This document shows positions 2,823-21,472 of a DNA stretch of 64,000 nt, one piece after another. The stretch spans positions 3,694,501 to 3,758,500 of the forward strand of contig CP126201.1 of the NCBI GenBank assembly GCA_030272155.1, given 5' to 3'. A program made the position numbers and the translations under genes. This DNA is from Tetradesmus obliquus. Taxonomy: Eukaryota; Chlorophyta; Chlorophyceae; Sphaeropleales; Scenedesmaceae. The notes beneath the pieces were generated by a model. The model was not told where the DNA came from, made no database searches, and saw only the letters and a list, made by a program, of their open reading frames with translations. The number at the start of each line of letters is the position of its first letter. The first letter of the stretch is position 1.

Positions 2823-3555
2823 GTGGTGGGGCTGGGCCAGCGGCTACCTGGCTGCTGGTGAGATAGGTGGTTGGCTATGCGTGTGGAGGCAGCAGCGGTC
2901 CCACCAAGACTGTGGTATGTTGTGGTGGGTGCAGTTGCAAAATGTTACACCAAGGATGAATTCTGACCTGGTGCACAGCACCAGTTGCTGTTGCTGGAGT
3001 GCTTGAGGGTTACTGTGACGTAAGAAGTGGCTGGTTGTTGTTGCACAGCAGGACGTTTGTACTATGGATGGTTGTAATTAGTTGTAGCTGGCACAGTGTT
3101 GGCGGTGATGGGCGGCACAGGCGGGCTGTATGTATGCCAGGTGCTGGAATAGAAGTGCGGCTGCGTGGACAGCCACGGCCAGCACACGAGATTTGCGGCG
3201 TGCTTTTGGATAGTAGAAGGTGCTGACCGTATTGTTGCTCCTGTCTTGGGGTGCCTTGCCCGCCGGGGGCGGTTGGTTGGAAGTAAACTGACAGGAGTGA
3301 GAAGTGAGAAAGAAGTTTTGTCGGGCATGGACTAATCTTCACCCACGGCTGCAGATGATCATTTTCTACTCAAGAACGAGTTATAAGCCTCAACATGTAA
3401 TTCAAAGTTGACGTCCTTCTGTATCGCTTGGCGTGTCGTTGCCAGTGTTACCGCGACAGCATGCTTGCTGCGTAGCTGTTGCGGGCTGTTTCAAAGCTTC
3501 GACATCACTTTCCACCATCACTGACGTTTGAACACATCACGGAAGCGAAGCAGAC
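2823..3555 (+). other. 3' UTR and intergenic region
   Basis: No supported gene. Holds the 3' UTR of the upstream gene (TGTAA at 3396-3400) and the promoter/5' UTR of the next one. No repeat of note. Confidence 0.6.
3396..3400 (+). terminator. TGTAA polyadenylation signal
   Basis: TGTAA, the usual green-algal poly(A) signal, lies about 575 nt after the stop at 2822 and before the next start at 3556. Confidence 0.45.
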
Positions 3556-9798: not shown

Positions 9799-12700
9799 AT
9801 GCAAAACGTACCAGCAGACGATGCCGCTGCTTACAATAGGATGGCCAGCACATCGGAGCAGCAGGTGGGTCTGTGCAGAGGTGCACATCCAGGTGTTGGT
9901 CACATCTGCTCGTATCCATGCAGTAGTAGGCACTGCACACATGCGATACCTTCAATCTTTATTACTTTCTATAGGTTGCGTGCCCGGCATCCTATAGCTT
10001 GGGCTGCTGTGCAATCACATGCGCTGCTAGCCACCCTGGCACCACATGCACACCTCTGCCTTTCTCTGGCTCTTGGCGACTGCTGCTGCTCACTGCCTAT
10101 TTGCCATGTTCTGATGCAATTGCTCCCTGCAGGACTCTGCAAAGGTGCTGCTGCCAGCAGACCTGCCCCACCCCGGGCCTATGGTAGCTCACGAACCACT
10201 TGAAATGTCGAGCACCCGCTTTATTAGTGTGAAGCCTGTCACGCTGTACAGGACAGAACCCAAGCCCGCCAGCCCAGCCACAGCAGCAGCACCAGCCGGC
10301 CCACCTGCCGACATTGATACTGCAGCCACCACAGACACCCGTCTGACATCTGACATGGCAAACCTCAACCTGCAGCAGCAGCAGCACCACCCCGTGCCTG
10401 CTGCGCCGGCTGCTGCGGCAGCAGCTGCAGCTGCATTCCCTGCTGCCGGCAGCCACGAGCACAGCAGCAGCAGGGTGCATGCTGTTGCTGCAGATGACAA
10501 CGTGTATGCTGTGCCGAGGCCTGCGGCTGAGGGCAGCCCAGCACCTGTGCCTGCTGCTGTGCTGGCAGGCAGTGCAGCAGCAGAGCCTGAGCCAGGCCAC
10601 CACAGGCAAGTGGCAGGCGTACACTGCAATCTGCATGCATTCCAACAAACAAGCAGAAGCAAAAGGCTGCATTTTGTTTGTCATGTGGCTCCTGGTGAAG
10701 TCTGGCTGCGTCTGGTTTGCCTGCGAGTGCTGTCGTGCAGCTGCGCCTGACACAGCTGGACTTCAAACATGGTCCAGCGTGACTGTCTCTTTTGAAACAT
10801 TACAGCACACGTGTGTGCACCTCATGTTAAATGTCACGACACCCATTCACTACAAGGTGTCCTTATCTTTGGTGTAGAAAGTAATCACGCACATATGATA
10901 CCATACCAACGCTTGCTGATCGTTACGATGCCGATCTGCTGTTGTCTGACGCCTCGGACGTTGCCACAGAAAGCTCGTCACGCTGCCTGCATTTTCGCAA
11001 AGCGCTGAACGTGCCTGCTGCTCTGCTGGCTGCAGGCGCAAGCACCGCCGCCACAGGCTGAGCAAGAAGATCAAGAAGATGTTTGGCGGCGGCAAGGATG
11101 AGGAAGAGCGCAGCGCTGCAGTTGGTGGCGTGGCGGCAGGTGGGCGCCCTTGTTGCGGGTCAGATAGAAGGCTTGCATTTGCAGTGTGTGAGAGGTAGCT
11201 ACCTCTTTAGCAGCCTCTCTGTTGCATCCACTGCCTCATGAGGCAGTGGATAAGGCAGAGAGGTTGCTACAGAGGCGGCTCTCTGATCAGAGCCCGGCAC
11301 GGCCAACTCACGATATCTTGCACCATGCTAATGTGCCGCATCGATTTATACGGACATGCTGCCCTGTATGCAGGAGGCGACTATGCTGGCAGCGACTACT
11401 CCGCCTCATCCTCGGCTTCTGCCTCGGAGCCCGGCACGCCCACCTTACAGTATGTCACAAAACGCTTATGTGCCGTACTGCTTTCTGCTGCCCTGCTGCA
11501 ACATACATGCAGCAGGTGACTATGCTGGCAGCGACTACTCATCATCTGCCTCTGCCTCGGAGCCAGGCACGCCCACCTCAACAGTATGTCAAAATTTGCT
11601 CTATGCTGCCCTGCTGCACTGTATGCAGGCGGCGACTACAGCGACTACTCTGCCTCATCATCTGCCTCTGCCTCCAAGCCAGGCACGCCCCACTCCCACT
11701 CATCAAACAGCGAGTGGCCGGAGCGCCCGCCTGAGCGCAAGACAGGCACCATCCCCAAGGCCACGCGGGGCATTGTTGACGCGCTGAGCCCTGCCATGAT
11801 CGGCAAGATCGTGAAAACGATGGGGCCGAGCGTGACCAAGCGCATCCTCAACGTGCTGGGTGAGCTGATAGCGCGGAGTCGTCGCTAGTGCTTCATGCCT
11901 GGCAGGGTGCATCAGCACCTGCAGTATGGCAAAGGGTTGAGCTGCGGCCACGCGCTGCTGGCTAGCCAGACAACGATGCAACTGTCACAAGTAACAAGTT
12001 CTATAAATCAGCAGGCAAGGTTTCCTGAGCATGTGTTTTCCGTGCCTGATTCAGACATGCATAACTGTATTGAATCTCTTATCAGCTGCTGTCCAACCGT
12101 GGGAGCAGTGACCAGCTGTTGTCCAACCGTGGGAGCAGTGACAGCTTGCCAGCTGCTGCTAACTCTGATTTTGTGTATCGGCTGTGCAGGGCTGGAGACG
12201 ACTGCCGACACTGCAGCTGAGCTGGGCCCGGACCGTGTGCAGATCATCGTGGACAACCTTGGCGGGGACAAGACCGCTGCACTGGCCAAGAAGCTGGGAG
12301 GCAGCCAGACGGGGCAGCTGGTGACAGACATGGGCCCGGGGGTGAGTGGAGCACTGGCAACTGTTTTAGTGATTTAGTTAATGCTGACTGTTGCATCGCA
12401 CAGAACAGTGCGCAACGAAAGATTGAGCGGGGCAGCGCAATGAGACCTTTGCGTGTAACTGGATGCTGGCAACGCACCAGGATACATCAGGTGCTGTCGC
12501 GCTTGCAGGTGGTGGTGATGTGCAGGGTTGTCGCAGCTAGCGGAAGCACCAGTTCATCCTTTTGCCATGCTGAACTATGGTTTTTACCTGCCTGGTTGCT
12601 GCCTGCCTTGCTGCTGCTGCTGCTGCAGGTCACGTCTGATGTGGTCCAGGGCTTTGGGCCAGAGATGACTGCTGACATTGTGGAGGTGAGCATGCCTGGT

Positions 12701-13467
12701 GCAGACACTGATTTGCATGGTACAGATGCCGATCGCTGCATTGGTCTTGTGCGACTATGCATTGCATAGTAAAAGCAGCCGCAAGCCTGCACTGCATGAT
12801 GTCGGAAGTCATGCCATTGCGCCCTCAGTGAGGGCCAGGCGCCAACCTGACCTATGACGTGCAAGCTTCTGGCTGCAACAGTACAGCTACGGCTGGTAGC
12901 AGGTTCGTCAGCAGCTGCCAGCCACGCTGAGCAGTGGAGTGATTCTGAATTCATTGTGTTTCTGATGCTGTCCTGTGTGCAAGGTGTGCAGACAGCAGCA
13001 GCAGCCGACAGGCTTTATATGGGTGTGTGGCAGCTGCAGCTGCACGATGCTTGCCATAGCCGGCCTACCTGCCGGCCTGTCTACCTGCCTGCTTGCTTGC
13101 CTACGTGCCTGCCAACGTTCTGTCTACCTGCCTGCTTGCTGCTGCTGTCATGTTGCTGTAGCACCTGACCCCCAGCACTGTGGCCGAGGTGGTGGAGGAG
13201 ATGGGGCCAGCGCTCACAGGTGCGTGGCAGCACAGTAGCACTTGATGTATGGCAGACGGCATGTTCTGCAGCAGCAGCATTGCCACTGCATCACAATCGG
13301 CGCAAGTCTGTTGGCGTGATAATCTAGTTCTGTTGTGCACTGCAGGTGGCTGCTTTGAGCACCAGCAAGCTCATGTTATGCAACCTGCTGTATAGCAGCC
13401 ACTCAAGTGCAGCTGCTGCTGCCTAACAGCCAGCGCGCTATCCTCGACTGTTTGGTTATGGTCAACA

Positions 13468-13501
<34 letters not shown>

Positions 13502-14429
13502 AGGCGACCTGGTGCGTGAGATGGGCCCTGGCTTCACTGGCACCCTGGTGGAGGCCTTCGGGCCAGACATGACGGCAGACATCGTGCGCAACTTTGGGCC
13601 ACCACTCACAGGTGCGATATATGCTGTGCTGGACACCAGACGAAGTGCAGCAGTGGTGAATTATGCCATAATCCACAGTGTGGACGTGCATCAGCTGTTG
13701 CTGTGCTGTACAGACCTACGCAGACGGTGGGGAATTTTCACCTTCGGCTGGCCAGCATTCTGTGTTGTATGTCGCCTACTTACCAGCTGTAACGTGCAGA
13801 CAGGTCATGTAGCAAGCTGCACTGTGTCCTGCTGCTTTGTGCAACGTTATCTGTTGCACTGTTGAGTTGCAGCCCTGCCGCTTGTTGCTGCCCTGCTGCC
13901 TGCACTGCGCTCTGCAGCCAGCCTGGTGCGTGACCTTTGCCCGCACCTGACCGCCACCATCATGCACGCCAGCAGCCCGCGCTCACCTCTGTGGCTGACT
14001 TATGAGCTGTTTTGCATTGTCATGTGGTGCTGCTGCCTGCCTTCCGGTCTGCAGCCAGCCTGGTGCGTGACTTTGGCCCGCACCTGACAGCCGACATTGT
14101 GCATGCCATGGGCCCTGCCCTCACCTCGGATCTGGTGGGCCAGTTTGGTGGCAGCTTCACCAGCCAGCTGGTGCGCGCCTTTGGCTACCCGCTGACTGCA
14201 GGTGAGGCAGGGCTGACGGCTGCACACGCCTGTATGTATGCCCACTTCAGGAACAAATGCGTGCTTTTTTTATGTGGCGCAGCGTCACAGTCCGTCCGAA
14301 AGCGGAGCTGTCCAAAATGTTGTGTGTAGTATGTCCAGCCGCTTGCAAGGGCAGGTCTCTTTATGATCAGCATCCCGCTGTGCTTGTCTGATTCTCTCCC
14401 TGCTGCTGCTGCTGCTGCTGCTCCTGCTC

Positions 14430-14463
<34 letters not shown>

Positions 14464-15892
14464 CAACAACTGCAGAAATTGTGCTGGCCATGAACCCCGC
14501 CTTCACTGGCAACCTGGTGGCTGCCTTCGGCCCCAACCTCACTGGTGACGTGGTGGAGGCAATTGGGCCTGACGGCGTGGGGCAGCTTGTTGCGGTGAGA
14601 TGAGGAGTAGGGATGGCTGTGGTCTGATCTATTCCAATAAACGTGATCAAGTTGATCAAGCAGTGCACAACACCAGGGCTGCAGCGCACTGGTGATGTGG
14701 TGGAGGCGATTGGGCCCAATGGGGTGGGTCAGCTTATTGAGGTGAGACGAGGAGAGACGAGGAGAGACGAGGAGTAGGGATGGCTGTGGTATGATCTATT
14801 TTGAACAAGCAGTGCACAACACAAGGCCTGCGGCGCACTGGTGACGTGGTGGAGGCTATTGGCCCTGATGGAGTGGGGCAGCTGGTGCAGGTGCGGCTTG
14901 AGTGATTGCAACGGGGGCCAGTCATGGTCTTGACCTGTTGTGAAGTAGTGCAAAACGTGCTGCGCGCACCCTCACAGGTGTTGTGGTGGAAGCCATTTGG
15001 CCTGACGGCGTGGGGCAGCTGGTGCAGGTGAGACGAGGGGGCGAGCTGTGGTCTGCACTGATCCTACCTCAAAGCGGCTTCCACAGAAATGCAAGCAGCC
15101 GGGGCATGTCAAAGGATATTGTAAAGCTGTGCATAGCTTGGGGAAACTTCTCTGCAGTGCGTCGTTGCTGACGTCCCTGCTGCGTGGTGTGCTGGGTGCA
15201 GGGCATGGGTGCTGGCTTCACTGCGGGCATCGTGCAGCAGCTGGGAGTGACGCCCACTGCTGCCCTGGTGGCCAGGTTTGGCGGCCAGCTCACGGGAGGT
15301 GAGTGCACTGCTGTAACTGGCTGGTGCACGGCTTGCTGCTGTTGCTGCTGTCAAATTGACATTGTGTCGTTGCAGTTGTCGTCGTGTTGGCTGCGCATCT
15401 GCAAGCAGACAGCAGTCGGCTGTCTCAGAGCACGGTGACAGACATCGTCCACGCCGCATACTATTGTCAGGCACATCCCAGGGCTGGCTGCTGCACATGC
15501 TGAAACCAGCGCTGTGCAAGCAGTGCTGTGTTGGTGCGACTTTGCTGACAAGGAACGCCATCTGCTGCCCTGCTGCTTTGCTGCTGCTGCTGCAGCGCTG
15601 GTGCAAGCCTTTGGCCCTGTGCTGACTGGGCAGATTGTGAGGGCGCTGGGCCCTGACCTGACAGGTGGGCTGGCAGAGGCAGCAGTAGGGGCATTGCCTC
15701 AAAAGCGTGCGAGGCAGAAGTGCGTCCGCAAACTGCATCACTGGGCGTCACGTACCTTTTGCTCTGCATCTTGTTCTTTTCGAGCTGGACATCGCCAACC
15801 AGCATCGTCCGCAATGCTAGCATTACCGGAGTGCTCCGGCACGGTTCATCTTGGTGCGTGGCTGCTGCTGCTGCTGCTGCTTCTGCTGTTGC

Positions 15893-15943
<51 letters not shown>

Positions 15944-17754
15944 GGCTGCTGCAGGCCACCTGGCGCTGTCCATGGGCAGCAGCCTGACAGCTGGCATCGT
16001 GGTCGCTGCTGGCGTGGAGCGCATCGGGGCGCTGGTGGGACAGATGGGTGGCGAGGTGACAGGTGGGTGAAGGCCCGGTGCAGAGATGAGTGGCCAGTGC
16101 ACGGGGGTTCAAACCAAGTTGGCTGTGAAGCAAGACAGTGCATCGGGGCGCTGGTAGGCCAGATGGGCGGCGAGGTGACAGGTGGGTGGGGTTGCTGCAG
16201 AGATGATTATGCTGTGCATGGGGTCTTGGTTGTGGAGTAAGACGATGATTGCATTGGGGCGCTGTGGATGCAGATGGGCAGGGAGGTGACAAGTGGGTTC
16301 CAGGTTCTGCGTGAGATGATTATGTTGTGCATGGGGGCGTGGTTGTGAAGCAAGACAAGATAATGAATACATCGGGGCGCTGGTGGGCCAGATGGACGGC
16401 GAGGTGACAGGTGTGTGAAGGGCTGCTGCAGAGATGATTGTGCAGTGCATGGGGGTTTCAAACCAAGTCAGCTGTGAAGCAAGACAGTGCATCGGGGCAC
16501 TGGTGGGCCAGATGGGCGGCACAGTGAAAGGTGGGTGAAGAGCTGATGCAGAGATGATTGTGCAGTGCATGCGGGCTTGCTGTGAAGCAAGACAGTTATT
16601 GGTGTTCCGTAGGCCCATTTTGACAATGGGCGGGAATCACAATAGATGATGTCGAGCAGGCGACAAATTGGTTTCTTTGCTTATCCTGCTTGCTGTTGTG
16701 CTCTGAATCTGCAACGTTGTGCTGCACCGCCCGCAGGTGGCATCGTGCAGAGCATGGGCCCCCAGCCCAATGCTGCAGATGCATGCTGCTGGCTACTACC
16801 CTGCCCAGTAACTTGCTATGTGCAGCAGATGTTCTGGTGTTGTACGTGACTCACACCTGTACATGGGCTGCCGCCGCACTGCCTTGCATGTCTACTTCTT
16901 CCTGTGCAGGTGGCATTGTGCAGAGCATGGGTCCTGTGCCCACTGCTGCGCTGGTCAAAGAAGTGGGCTCTGGCCCCATTGGGCAGCTGGTGGACGCCAT
17001 GGGGCCTGATCTGGCTGCATCAGTGGTGCACAACATGGGAGTGGATCTCACCGCAGAGCTAGTGACACACCTGGGGCCTCAGGTGGCAGCTGGCATTGTG
17101 GCATCAGCCGGCGGTGACACCACTGGTGCGCTGGTGCGTGCGATGGGCGCTGATTTCGTGGCGGCGCTGGTGACGAAGCTGGGTGTAACTAGCAATGTGA
17201 AGCTAGTGGCGGAGCTAGGGCCTGGGCTGCTGGCCCAGCTGGTGGCTGCAATGGGGCCGGTGTTCATTGGGAACCTGTCGCTGAGCATGTCGAGTGAGAT
17301 CTTTCATGCAATCTTTGGGGCAGTGGGCAATGCAGTGACAGGTCATGGGCATAATGGCGAGGGTGAGCAGCAGGGTGTAACTAGTGCTGGCGGTGAGGCA
17401 GTGCCAACTGCCGGGTGGATGCCAGGTCAGCAGGGTGGTGGTGTAACTAGTGACACCAGTGACGTGGCGACAGTGGGTGACCAGGCAGGTGGCAATCGCT
17501 ACCAGGTTGGCACAGCAGCAGCACCAAGGCTGAAGGCCACTACCATCAGTGTGACGCCTCTGGTGGGCACCTCTGTCACCACCAGCAGCAGCAGCAGCAG
17601 CGCAGGTATTGTTCGTGGTGCTGAGTCACCCCTGGCGAGGCCAACCGGCCTGCATCCTCATACAGAGGGGGTGGCAGACATTGGGCTGCGCCGCCAGCGC
17701 AGCGCAGGCAGCCACACAGGCGCAGGCCTTGAGGGCATGCCGCCTGTTGTGTAA
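9799..17754 (+). CDS. 38 x 12-residue repeat protein, family unknown
   Basis: Fourteen exons (9799-9864, 10133-10605, 11036-11139, 11629-11859, 12190-12341, 12629-12685, 13162-13219, 13504-13611, 14055-14201, 14476-14594, 15202-15298, 15596-15664, 15955-16062, 16910-17754) join in phase to 877 residues. Intron 2 has a GC donor (CAG|GCAAGT). Residues 1-267 are disordered: Ala/Pro/Gln-rich, then a basic patch (RKHRRHRLSKKIKKM) and Ser-rich sequence. Residues 268-723 are 38 consecutive dodecads, consensus G-P-x-L/F-T-x-x-L/I-V-x-x-M/F/L, for example GPDMTADIVRNF. Gly is at position 1 in 35 of 38, Thr at 5 in 26 and Val at 9 in 33. The register is unbroken across every splice junction, which supports the model independently. 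The tail is Gly/Ser/Thr-rich. No signal peptide or known domain is seen. The repeats may form short amphipathic helices broken at Gly-Pro. Confidence 0.85.
11290..11583 (+). repeat. two spare copies of exon 4 plus a remnant
   Basis: Exon 4 of the repeat gene (from 11629) begins GGDYSDYS and continues SASASKPGTP. Close copies with CAG acceptors and GTATGT donors lie at 11374-11449 (GGDYAGSDYS...EPGTP) and 11516-11583; a weaker remnant is near 11290. Both copies accept phase 1 from exon 3 but end in phases 2 and 0, whereas exon 4 needs phase 1. They therefore cannot be spliced serially into exon 4 and look like fossils or dead-end alternatives. Confidence 0.8.
13918..14000 (+). repeat. decayed copy of exon 9
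   Basis: After a CTGCAG acceptor the sequence reads ASLVRDLCPHLTATIMHAS, a copy of the functional exon at 14055 (ASLVRDFGPHLTADIVHAM). It then drifts and has no donor. Spacing is about 137 bp. Confidence 0.8.
14685..15027 (+). repeat. three copies of the exon 10 end
   Basis: The end of exon 10 (GDVVEAIGPDGVGQLVA, then GTGAGA) recurs at 14685-14741, about 14833-14890 and 14978-15027. Each copy keeps a GT donor, and two are followed by the same GTGAGACGAGG sequence as intron 10. Spacing is about 135-150 bp. Repeat register and phase are best with all three skipped. Confidence 0.8.
16139..16530 (+). repeat. four copies of the exon 13 end
   Basis: The end of exon 13 (IGALVGQMGGEVTG then GTGGGT) is repeated at about 16139-16181, 16249-16291, 16371-16410 and 16489-16530, period 110-120 bp, along with adjoining intron sequence. 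Most keep the GTG donor. None has an acceptor giving the right frame. Confidence 0.8.
16737..16790 (+). repeat. decayed copy of the last exon's start
   Basis: After CGCAG, the sequence reads GIVQSMGPQPNAADA, matching the start of the true last exon at 16910 (GIVQSMGPVPTAALV). It lacks a donor and drifts after about 45 bp. Confidence 0.75.
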
Positions 17755-18516: not shown

Positions 18517-21472
18517 CTACGCCTTTTGCCGCTTCTTCTTGCTGAGCCCAGGCAGTGACGCCTCACCAGCTGCTGCTGCATCCGCCTCCCGCTTACCCTT
18601 CTTGTTGCTCTTCTTCTTTTTGTGCGCCTTCACCTCCCCAGCTGCTGCTGCTGCTGCATCTCCTGCATGCTCCTCTACTGCAGCCGCACCCGCTGCTGCT
18701 GCTGCTGCATCAGCAGCTGCTGGCGCCACCTGCCGCACTGGCAGCCAGCAGAGCGCCGTCAGCTGCTGTTTCAGATACACCCTGCAGCTGCCAGCTTTGG
18801 TGGCAGTGCTGTGTACCCGCAGGAAGCGATCCAGGCCTGCTGACGCCACCAGGGCTTGGCCGCCGGGGTGCAAAGCAAGTGCCCTCACTGAACCACCTGC
18901 TCCTTTCAGGGCGTCCATCATCTTGTTGGTGCTCATGTCTAGTACTTGCATGTGGCCGGTGCCGTTGGCAGCCCACACGTGCATGCCTGCAGGCAGCAGC
19001 AGCAGCAGTGGCGCACCAGCCATTAAAGTTAGACATGGTGTCAGTCATTCGGCATGTGCATTGGCGCTTTGGCAACTTCAAGGCCCATAGACATCATGCT
19101 GTACCCACCAACATGCTGCTGCCTGTGCTTCTGCCATGCACATGCACATCCTCCAAGATTGCCATTGCTCCTATACCATCAGCTTGTCTCTGTTATGCAT
19201 GCCACTGACAGCCAACCCCGTTCCCCTCTTACCGTCCCGCTCAGGCGCCAGTGCTGTGATGCGTGTCTCCCCAAACACGACCTCTTTCTGCGGCCGCCGC
19301 CCAGCAGCAGTGTCATACACATAAACCTTGGACGCGGCGCTGCCAGCAACAAACCGCAGCTTCACTGCTGCATCCCCAGCATCCTCATCTGCTGCTGCTG
19401 CTGCTGCTTGTTTGGCGCCGCTGTCACTGCTGCTGCTGCTGCCTGGTAGGAAGGCGACTGCTGTGGTGAAGGGCTTGTCCACCAGTAGGGTTTGCCGGTG
19501 CGGTTTGCCGCCCTTGGCCTGCCACAGCTTGCTGCCTGCTGCCAGGTCCCAGATGCTCGGCTGCACACCCTCACCACCTAGCAGCAGGTGCCGCCCGCTG
19601 CTGCTGATGGCCTGTTGCAAAATGCAATGAGCAGTAGAAGGTACATCAGCAAGAGCAGCCCAGAGTGTCGAAGGATCAGTAAAGGAGCTCAGCAGCTGGC
19701 ACAGACAATGTGACGTTCATTGCCAAGCCCCACGATATCTGCAGAATTCATTTTAACCAGCGTATAAATCTGGTGTGATTGCCCAGATGCATGACAAGCT
19801 CCCCAGCCACACAAGTGCAGCCAAAGCACAGCTGCTGCTGCTGCTGTGGTGTGGCGTGTGTGTTTGCTGCATCTAGCCTGACCCATGCTGCCTGGCAGAT
19901 GCCTTATGTTCTTCATCTCACCATGCATGTTATGCTGGGCCCAGCCTGGAAGCTCCTGCTGACGGCCCAGCTGCTGCTGTCCCCGCTGCTGCTGCAGCTG
20001 CAGACGCTGACCATGCCGTCAGAGGTTGTTGCCACCAGCTGCGGCGGGCTGCGGCAGCAGCAGCATGTTTCATAAGCAGCGCATGTTGCAATCAGTGACG
20101 GTTGCTGAACATGGGCAGGTACTCAGCCAACATGCTACACGGGAGCCATAGTTATGTGCCGGAATCACCATGTATGCATGCTGCCGGCACATGAGGCAAC
20201 ACGAGGAACCGCTGCTGCAAATGCCCAATACAGCAGGCAACGGAAGACAGTGACCTCATAACAACAGCACGTCGTGACATTGGAGGTTGCCATGGCCAGC
20301 TATGCAACCTCAAGCACCTGTAGCTGCCCGCACCTGCCGCCGTCTTGCTGCTGCACGAAGGCCACCGCTGCCAGCTGCACCTTGCTGGCTGCTGCTGCCC
20401 CGCCAGCTGGCTTCTCTGGTGCTGCTGCTGTCAGGCTGGCCTGCTGTGTGCCTGTGGCTGCATCAAGTACATCTAGCCGCCTGCCCTTCCTGCCAACTGC
20501 AACGAGGCCAGCAACACCTGGCAAAGCCAACAAAACAAGCAGCAGCAATGTTGTGGGCGATAACTGTGGGTGGTGGTGATGGTGCTGCTGCATTCTGACC
20601 GGTTGAAGAGTGGCACAGTGGTGTGTACATTTGCTGCCGTGCTCCGTGCAAAACCGGCGAGAGCGTGCTCGCTTGCTGTGATGCCGCAATCAGCAGCAGC
20701 TGCAGACACGTCCGTTCACAGCTGCACCTGCCAAGCCTGCAGGCTGCACTGCAGTAGCCTGAGTATGCTCTTGGCGGTTGCCAACATCACAATAGTGCAA
20801 ATCGCCTGTGTTGTGCTGGTTAACATATACATGTGCAGTCACCTGGCTGCAGGCTGCTGGCTGAGCAGGCCACACACGTCACGCCCTGCTCCTTGTCAGC
20901 CTGGCCCCTGCAGGGGGCACATTGCATGGCAAGCACACTGTTACGGCTGAACTACACCAGCAGGTCCGCTGCGTTGAAATTTCAGTATCAGCAGTGGAAT
21001 ACGGCACTCGTGCTGTGAAGCTGCAGGGCTGCGCTGCGCATGGATGCCTCGTGAACAGCTAGCGCAGGTTAGAAGCATGTGCTCAGTAATCAAAAGCTGC
21101 GATGCTTGCACCACAACATACATGTGCCTACTGGTGACCTGGTCTGTAACGGGGCAGCTCTAACAGCACACTTGGGTTGACAAGGCTGGCACGCTATGCA
21201 GTACGCATACATCAGTATACAATGTGCTGGCTGCCACCTTTCCCCACTCACCAAGTTTGTACCACGGCTGCATCTGCCCATTTGGGACCATCAGGTACTT
21301 CTACCACTGCAACACAGCCATACAAGCAATTCAACCATTATGATACAGATGTATGGGCAGCTGCAGACTTCGTGCAGGTGCTGTGCCAGCTTTGCCCACC
21401 TTTCAGCACGCCAAGCTCATCTGCTGCCAGCAGCCTGTAAGCAGCAGGCTGCTGCTGCTTGCCAGCAGACAT
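18517..21472 (-). CDS. WDR74/Nsa1-like WD40 ribosome-biogenesis factor
   Basis: Minus-strand exons 21472-21400, 21306-21252, 20907-20843, 20517-20334, 20048-19922, 19611-19233 and 18986-18517 join in phase to 450 residues, starting MSAGKQQQPAAYRLLAADE. The protein is a WD40 propeller like metazoan WDR74 and yeast Nsa1, nucleolar factors in 60S pre-ribosome maturation (with the AAA ATPase NVL/Rix7). Family-like segments are LGVLKVVEVPDGPKWADA near the start, LLLGGEGVQPSIWDLAAG, FVAGSAASKVYVYD, a blade reading SVRALALHPGGQALVASAGL, and VYLKQQLTALCWLP near the end. The C-terminus is a lysine-rich nucleolar-type tail (KAHKKKKSNKKGKR, SKKKRQKA). Insertions are Ala-rich. Its start faces the small mitochondrial-type gene across 441 bp. 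Confidence 0.88.

What the first reader, a model, noticed from the sequence alone, without database searches (positions are those of the whole stretch)
11765..17300. Unrecognised protein built from 38 consecutive 12-residue repeats
Spliced in phase, ten exons encode 38 dodecads with consensus G-P-x-L/F-T-x-x-L/I-V-x-x-M/F/L and no insertion or deletion between units. Position 1 is Gly in 35 and position 9 Val in 33. The register continues through every intron, so the array is under selection for exact spacing. I know no named repeat family with this pattern. It may form a tight solenoid or a long chain of amphipathic helices broken at Gly-Pro; lipid, membrane or filament binding are all possible. 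A basic patch precedes the array.
Basis: partly seen in the sequence, partly recalled or inferred. Interest (0 to 1): 0.9.

Follow-up and report, generated by a model that had tools for sequence, protein, structure and literature searches.

The report
Long MgtE-N-type helical repeat array
A gene in a probable green alga encodes 38 back-to-back 12-residue helical repeats that look like a much extended, free-standing version of a small helical module known from bacterial magnesium channels and flagellar rings, probably used as a protein scaffold.

Summary
In detail: my splice model (14 exons, 9799-17754, 877 aa) gives exactly 38 dodecads without insertion or deletion at residues 268-723; Gly is at position 1 in 35 of 38, Val at position 9 in 33 of 38. 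The claim that no repeat family is known does not hold. Pfam puts the array in MgtE_N (PF03448; 68 bits, cut-off 25.9), the ARM-like superhelical module of bacterial MgtE, FliG and FlgY, itself built of 12-residue helices. Controls mostly back this: profile-profile score 29.6 against at most 19.3 for 20 permuted arrays; nine hits at E <= 1e-6 in 301 bacterial genomes, all nine MgtE_N (reversed array: 0 of 301). New is the form: 38 units, no CBS or MgtE membrane domain, low-complexity flanks, a eukaryotic host, three more Gly-led dodecad genes and one MgtE_N-like gene in the same genome, related frames in metagenomes, and 11 decayed exon copies in four introns. Relatives keep positions 1, 5, 8, 9 (96-100%) and vary at 3 and 7 (41-45%), as expected of a solenoid with a buried core. 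Function is inferred: most likely a scaffold. Fold evidence is moderate: one of five AlphaFold models is confident and no structural match is decisive.

The parts
9799..9864 (+). exon 1, start codon, 22 aa
   Evidence: splice model
10133..10605 (+). exon 2, low-complexity N-terminal region; followed by a GC-AG intron
   Evidence: no Pfam family in residues 1-267 up to E 10
11036..11139 (+). exon 3, basic segment RRKHRRHRLSKKIKK followed by an acidic stretch
11629..11859 (+). exon 4, Ser/Asp/Tyr-rich linker and dodecads 1-2 (last base begins dodecad 3)
11787..17289 (+). span of the 38-dodecad array (residues 268-723), interrupted by 10 introns
   Evidence: coordinates computed from the exon table
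12190..12341 (+). exon 5, dodecads 3-7
12629..12685 (+). exon 6, dodecads 7-8
13162..13219 (+). exon 7, dodecads 8-10; weakest acceptor (TAG, 3 of 9 AGs within 75 nt score higher)
13504..13611 (+). exon 8, dodecads 10-13
14055..14201 (+). exon 9, dodecads 13-17
   Evidence: related frames P0014, P0016, P0018, P0019
14476..14594 (+). exon 10, dodecads 17-20
   Evidence: related frame P0022
15202..15298 (+). exon 11, dodecads 20-23
   Evidence: P0024 joins exons 11 and 12 without an intron
15596..15664 (+). exon 12, dodecads 23-25
   Evidence: P0024
15955..16062 (+). exon 13, dodecads 25-28
   Evidence: related frames P0025-P0027
16910..17754 (+). exon 14, dodecads 28-38, conserved C-terminal segment SSEIFHAIFGAV, low-complexity tail, stop
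   Evidence: related frames P0001-P0010 and P0017; fold model
11390..11574 (+). two decayed copies of the start of exon 4 (11390-11441, 11529-11574) in intron 3
   Evidence: blastn 85-87% identity
13918..13989 (+). decayed copy of the start of exon 9 in intron 8
   Evidence: blastn 82%
14687..15023 (+). three decayed copies of the end of exon 10 in intron 10 (14687-14739, 14836-14886, 14967-15023); 14855-14890 is a 36-nt in-frame, in-register stretch with a poor acceptor
   Evidence: blastn 85-90%, cassette test
16137..16520 (+). four decayed copies of the end of exon 13 in intron 13 (16137-16181, 16251-16291, 16370-16410, 16486-16520), within a tandem array of about 120-bp units
   Evidence: blastn 78-93%; TRF
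16737..16776 (+). decayed copy of the start of exon 14 in intron 13
   Evidence: blastn 85%

Best explanation
The gene encodes a free-standing alpha-solenoid of 38 short helices. Each dodecad is one helix ending at a Gly-Pro break, and successive helices stack into a superhelix of the MgtE_N/FliG/FlgY ARM-like type. Positions 1, 5, 8, 9 and 12 form the core; positions 3, 7, 10 and 11 face solvent. Flexible, low-complexity arms with one basic segment flank the array. It most likely works as a protein scaffold whose exposed positions bind partners along its length, and it may stack end to end. The array grew by duplication of exon-intron pieces; failed copies remain in introns. Shown: the array, its register, its conservation, and profile-level similarity to MgtE_N. 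Partly shown: the helical fold. Inferred: the scaffold role, partner binding and intracellular location.
Confidence: 0.6

Rival explanations
1. Convergence: the alga invented a 12-residue helical solenoid of its own by unit duplication. It resembles MgtE_N because a tight one-helix-per-12-residues stack needs the same spacing of hydrophobic residues; there is no common descent.
For: Gly at position 1 is nearly fixed here (35/38) but rare in the MgtE_N windows examined. Foldseek is not significant. HHalign probabilities are 64% and 8.7%. A periodic control can score highly by chance. The C5 gene has clear Gly-led dodecads but no Pfam match.
Against: The order of residues matters, not only the period: 20 permuted controls stay at or below 19.3 against 29.6, the reversed array finds nothing at E <= 1e-6 in 301 genomes, and all nine strongest hits there are MgtE_N.
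Confidence: 0.25
2. A chain of separate amphipathic helices, broken at Gly-Pro, that coats lipid or membrane surfaces.
For: Short amphipathic helices with Gly-Pro breaks; a basic segment lies before the array. The C5 paralogue ends in a hydrophobic stretch that may be a membrane anchor (read by eye).
Against: Array net charge -18 with 19 Lys/Arg in 456 residues. Conserved positions 5, 8, 9 and 12 fit a buried core; 3, 7, 10 and 11 vary. The one confident model is a compact stack.
Confidence: 0.07
3. A magnesium-sensing regulator: a detached MgtE N domain that acts on a magnesium transporter of the alga.
For: Profile similarity to MgtE_N. The genome has a separate MgtE membrane-domain locus on C6 at 2.08 Mb with no PF03448 match beside it. 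Algal MgtE homologues exist and one in Ostreococcus affects magnesium and clock timing (PMC13022745, passages).
Against: No CBS or MgtE membrane domain in the protein. Position 3 is D/E in 13 of 38 and position 7 in 11 of 38 units, so no acidic site recurs through the array.
Confidence: 0.06
4. A decaying or mis-assembled repeat locus that is not translated as one protein.
For: Eleven decayed exon copies sit in four introns; no cDNA of this gene was available.
Against: Related frames, one of them a EukProt protein whose name looks like a transcriptome reading frame (P0008), keep the last ten dodecads without gaps at 68-90% identity, while the tail diverges.
Confidence: 0.03

Closest known systems
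MgtE intracellular N domain (Pfam PF03448) of bacterial MgtE magnesium channels
   Same: Consecutive 12-residue helices with hydrophobic residues at dodecad positions 8, 9 and 12 and often Pro at position 1 or 2; best Pfam hit and top bacterial hits.
   Different: The Pfam model has 102 positions and in MgtE is followed by CBS and membrane domains. Here there are 38 units (456 residues), no CBS or MgtE membrane domain, near-fixed Gly at position 1, and a eukaryotic host.
ARM-like motifs of FliG and the FlgY/FlbB/MotE E-ring proteins of bacterial flagella
   Same: Right-handed superhelix of short helices that matches MgtE_N (PMC11870540, section 4 read; PMC13023049, passages read); FliG_N at 25.1 bits with cut-off 25 for the array piece.
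   Different: Those domains are short (four helices in FlgY) and stack between subunits. The algal array carries 38 units in one chain, and the full protein scores 20.4 for FliG_N, below cut-off.
Canonical Armadillo and HEAT solenoids
   Same: Alpha-solenoids; importins and designed ARM proteins appear among the weaker structural matches.
   Different: Their unit is about 40 residues with two or three helices (recalled); no Arm or HEAT family was listed by Pfam, and the period here is 12.

Membership tests
MgtE_N domain (PF03448) | score above the curated Pfam cut-off (25.9 bits) | tested here: met
   68.3 and 63.1 bits; C10 paralogue 32.9. Last exon alone 21.8 and C6 paralogue 20.5 are below; the C5 gene gives no match
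MgtE_N domain (PF03448) | consecutive 12-residue units in the MgtE_N residue pattern | tested here: met
   register-specific profile alignment against permuted controls; ungapped dodecad windows of 14 MgtE N domains, 12 above all 300 shuffles but 10 of 14 with negative log-odds
MgtE_N domain (PF03448) | right-handed superhelix fold | tested here: inconclusive
MgtE magnesium channel | CBS pair (PF00571) and MgtE membrane domain (PF01769) with the N domain | tested here: not met
   not listed for the 877-aa protein up to E 0.5; PF01769 matches lie on other contigs
FliG | FliG_N domain above Pfam cut-off (25) | tested here: inconclusive
   25.1 for the 530-aa piece, 17.2 for a 264-aa piece, 20.4 for the full protein
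FliG | FliG_M domain above Pfam cut-off (25) | tested here: not met
   15.0 and 12.4 bits
FliG | C-terminal torque domain and rotor function | not testable with these tools
   no FliG C-terminal family was listed; rotor function needs experiment
Armadillo/HEAT repeat protein | Pfam Arm or HEAT match and a period of about 40 residues | tested here: not met
   none listed up to E 10 for the array piece; period 12

The most novel reading that the evidence does not exclude
Green algae took up or rebuilt the MgtE_N/FliG/E-ring stacking module and, by duplicating exon-intron pieces, turned it into a long scaffold family (at least four Gly-led dodecad genes here, beside an MgtE_N-like gene). In bacterial flagella the module makes rings from many subunits; here one chain holds 38 modules and could itself form a ring, spring or filament.
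Probability: 0.2. Interest if true: 0.75.

Novelty: new variant of a known kind. Interest (0 to 1): 0.45.

Why it matters
It would be an MgtE_N/FliG-type helical module extended to 38 units, more than four times the length of the Pfam model, in a eukaryote and apart from any magnesium channel or flagellum (I did not survey the lengths of all MgtE_N proteins). The exact 12-residue repeat, the 38 slightly different copies and the exon relics in introns make it a good natural case for how solenoids grow, and a possible template for designed repeat proteins. It also warns that a Pfam name (MgtE) can mislead: the shared part is a structural module, not a magnesium function.

Tried and rejected
Own-genome hits: one search translated the minus-strand loci on the wrong strand; one search repeated them on the right one. 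Real dodecad loci are C6, C10, C5 (334516) and C4 (6722365). Read and rejected as tandem DNA repeats: C1, C12, C13, C17 (two places), C4 at 2916674 and 313612. C16 (713020) was rejected as a Gln-rich repeat although it scores 32.4 bits for PF03448.

NCBIfam gave nothing useful. Sequence search of the PDB with the array listed no MgtE and FliG at E 1.8; a profile search listed one unrelated protein.

The full 877-aa protein as query (region 268-740) found 1 protein, at E 0.58, among 7,999 scored; this shows only that no full-length relative was among the candidates scored.

Cassette-exon test in ten array introns: only intron 10 holds 36-nt in-register stretches scoring near real dodecads (2.0 and 1.2 per residue; real mean 2.06); the better one begins at an AG inside former coding sequence, so I treat it as a relic. 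Five blastn rows of exon 2 against the CTG repeat of intron 12 were dropped as low complexity.

The conservation table used only HSPs above 55% identity and flattered the result; one search repeats it for ten related frames without that filter, placed without gaps by construction; absence of gaps is taken.

The second structure job (C10) was poor. In one search three of six genomes matched at E <= 1: two are MgtE by reading, the third (L051, frame with a stop) was not identified. Those six genomes had been picked as MgtE holders; the 301 were drawn evenly from one phylum, with few candidates scored per genome.

Papers: searches listed no paper on an algal or other eukaryotic dodecad or MgtE_N array. 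Several lists were capped (10 of 493: 20 of 29: 8 of 33). PMC13022745 was seen in passages only; there algal MgtE homologues are defined by PF01769, and the passages shown do not speak of N-domain arrays. PMC5882242 was seen in passages.
Full report
OBSERVATION. The region was read directly and spliced at hand-picked sites. Fourteen exons (9799-17754) give one open frame of 877 aa. Residues 268-723 are 38 consecutive 12-residue units with no insertion or deletion; Gly stands at position 1 in 35 of 38 and Val at position 9 in 33 of 38. Ten introns cut the array; six of them (introns 7, 8, 9, 11, 12, 13) fall at dodecad position 6 or 7 in phase 1. By splice consensus alone no GT within 75 nt scores higher than the chosen donor in 13 of 13 introns, and no AG higher than the chosen acceptor in 9 of 13; of 183 open in-frame pairs near the array introns, modelled ones included, 26 keep the register. 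So the register does not come from choosing odd splice sites.

HOST. The window lies on contig C11 of a 104.7-Mb genome in 17 contigs. Of four contig ends fetched, three carry TTTAGGG telomere repeats and one reads N throughout. With window GC 58% and CTG-rich introns this suggests a green alga; no call names the species.

RELATIVES. A search with the array found 10 proteins at E <= 1 among 8,000 scored: frames that match the last exon, nine from metagenome sources and one from EukProt. A profile of three arrays found 16 more at E <= 10, all at or below 3e-4. By reading and BLAST, ten of the 16 belong to this gene (exons 9, 10, 11+12, 13 and 14) and six to the C10 paralogue. These 26 are exon-level frames, not 26 genes: some share contig lengths and may lie on one contig, and P0001 (97%), P0015 and P0016 (98%) are so close to this genome that they may be the same species. 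P0024 runs through the place of intron 11 without an intron and in register; P0002 looks as if it had an intron at the place of intron 13. Over the last ten dodecads ten frames (68-90% identical; P0005 and P0010 cover 96 and 84 of 120 residues) keep position 1 at 96%, 5 at 96%, 8 at 100%, 9 at 96%, 12 at 86%, 2 and 6 at 80-81%, but 3 at 45%, 4 at 61%, 7 at 41%, 10 at 60% and 11 at 63%. The alignment has no gap in this stretch. The tail diverges. This is the pattern of stacked helices with a buried face under purifying selection.

PARALOGUES. On C6 three exons give 15 dodecads in register through two introns; its 5' end is not defined. On C10 seven exons give about 20, with a few units of 9, 13 or 15 residues (counted by reading). 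On C5 one open frame of 704 codons holds eight in a row (by reading); six of them score 60.2 where 500 shuffles reach at most 3.3. On C4 (6722365) separate frames carry Asp-led dodecads of the MgtE_N type; one reaches 26.5 bits for PF03448, above cut-off, and two neighbours 13.5 and 14.5, though three of its units do not stand out clearly against shuffles with the Gly-led matrix (12 of 500 reach them). This C4 gene was not spliced.

WHAT THE REPEAT IS. Pfam gives MgtE_N (PF03448) at 68.3 bits for a 530-aa piece and 63.1 for the full protein, cut-off 25.9. The C10 paralogue scores 32.9, C6 20.5, the C5 frame nothing. Ten of 11 members of the last-exon alignment list MgtE_N; the window's own piece scores 21.8. 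Because periodic proteins can gather false scores, controls were run. Against Pfam, six position-permuted, one reversed and one shuffled array gave no MgtE_N match (0 of 8), and a column-shuffled array kept 37.1 bits; but one permuted array scored 60.6 bits against PTAC, so the Pfam score alone is not proof. By HHalign a profile of overlapping 8-dodecad blocks of this array matched ten bacterial MgtE_N sequences at 29.6 (probability 64%) over 95 columns in register, and the last-exon family at 21.7 (probability 8.7%); permuted controls, 20 for each, reached at most 19.3 and 14.2, a reversed control of the last-exon family 10.4. As a search without a chosen target, the array was run over 301 genomes of one bacterial phylum: nine have a match at E <= 1e-6, 9 of 9 carry PF03448 and 8 of 9 CBS, the ninth being scanned only as a 96-aa fragment. 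The reversed array matched 0 of 301. Best ungapped five-dodecad windows of 14 bacterial MgtE N domains beat all 300 shuffles in 12 of 14, the exceptions being L045 (17 of 300 reach it) and 2yvy (3 of 300); 10 of 14 have negative log-odds, so the match is in pattern rather than in letters.

HOW IT MAY WORK. The array is acidic (net -18; 19 Lys/Arg in 456) and the flanks are low complexity with one basic segment. No other Pfam domain above cut-off was listed; no transmembrane predictor was run. The simplest reading is a scaffold: a long superhelix with a conserved core and variable exposed positions, tethered by flexible arms. Partner, place in the cell and function are unknown; the basic segment could be a nuclear signal or a membrane contact (recalled motif knowledge, untested).

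HOW IT GREW. Eleven decayed copies of exon pieces (78-93% identical) lie in introns 3, 8, 10 and 13, including a tandem array of about 120-bp units at 16139-16594. The array therefore seems to have grown by duplication of exon-intron pieces, with many failures. Two 36-nt stretches in intron 10 would still fit in frame and in register, but at least the better one lacks a good acceptor.

VERDICT. The claim of an unknown repeat is wrong at the level of the unit (MgtE_N-type module), but the architecture is unusual: a new variant of a known kind, with function open.

Noticed in passing
L033:4948-8277 (G000 C10) and L035:6580-7940 (G000 C6): Two further dodecad-array genes in the same genome; the C10 gene has a few units of 9, 13 or 15 residues, so spacing is not absolute in the family.
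   Followed up: partly
L011:976-3087 minus strand (G000 C5, match 334516-334725): An open frame of 704 codons with eight Gly-led dodecads in a row and, by eye, a hydrophobic stretch near its end that may be a membrane anchor; no Pfam match.
   Followed up: partly
L026, minus strand, 1435-1701, 2218-2643 and 3015-3167 (G000 C4 near 6722365): Asp-led, MgtE_N-like dodecads in at least three frames, one at 26.5 bits for PF03448; a possible link between bacterial MgtE_N and the Gly-led algal arrays.
   Followed up: partly
P0011 residues about 717-815: A bacterial-looking hypothetical protein of 1146 aa has Gly-led dodecads like the algal ones (33% over 99 ungapped residues, but database E 0.58) and no Pfam match; a lead to dodecad arrays outside MgtE.
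   Followed up: partly
window 18517-19044 (minus strand): Downstream frame on the opposite strand looks like a WD-repeat (beta-propeller) protein; all listed Pfam scores are below cut-off.
   Followed up: partly
G000 C6:2077651-2078460: Several MgtE membrane-domain (PF01769) matches in a row, apparently a magnesium transporter gene with no PF03448 match beside it.
   Followed up: no
window 14855-14890: A 36-nt in-frame, in-register dodecad inside intron 10 that could in principle be a cassette exon.
   Followed up: partly
P0002, P0003, P0008, P0009: Several relatives share a C-terminal motif like VKIIPAVxL in an otherwise variable tail; this gene lacks it.
   Followed up: no
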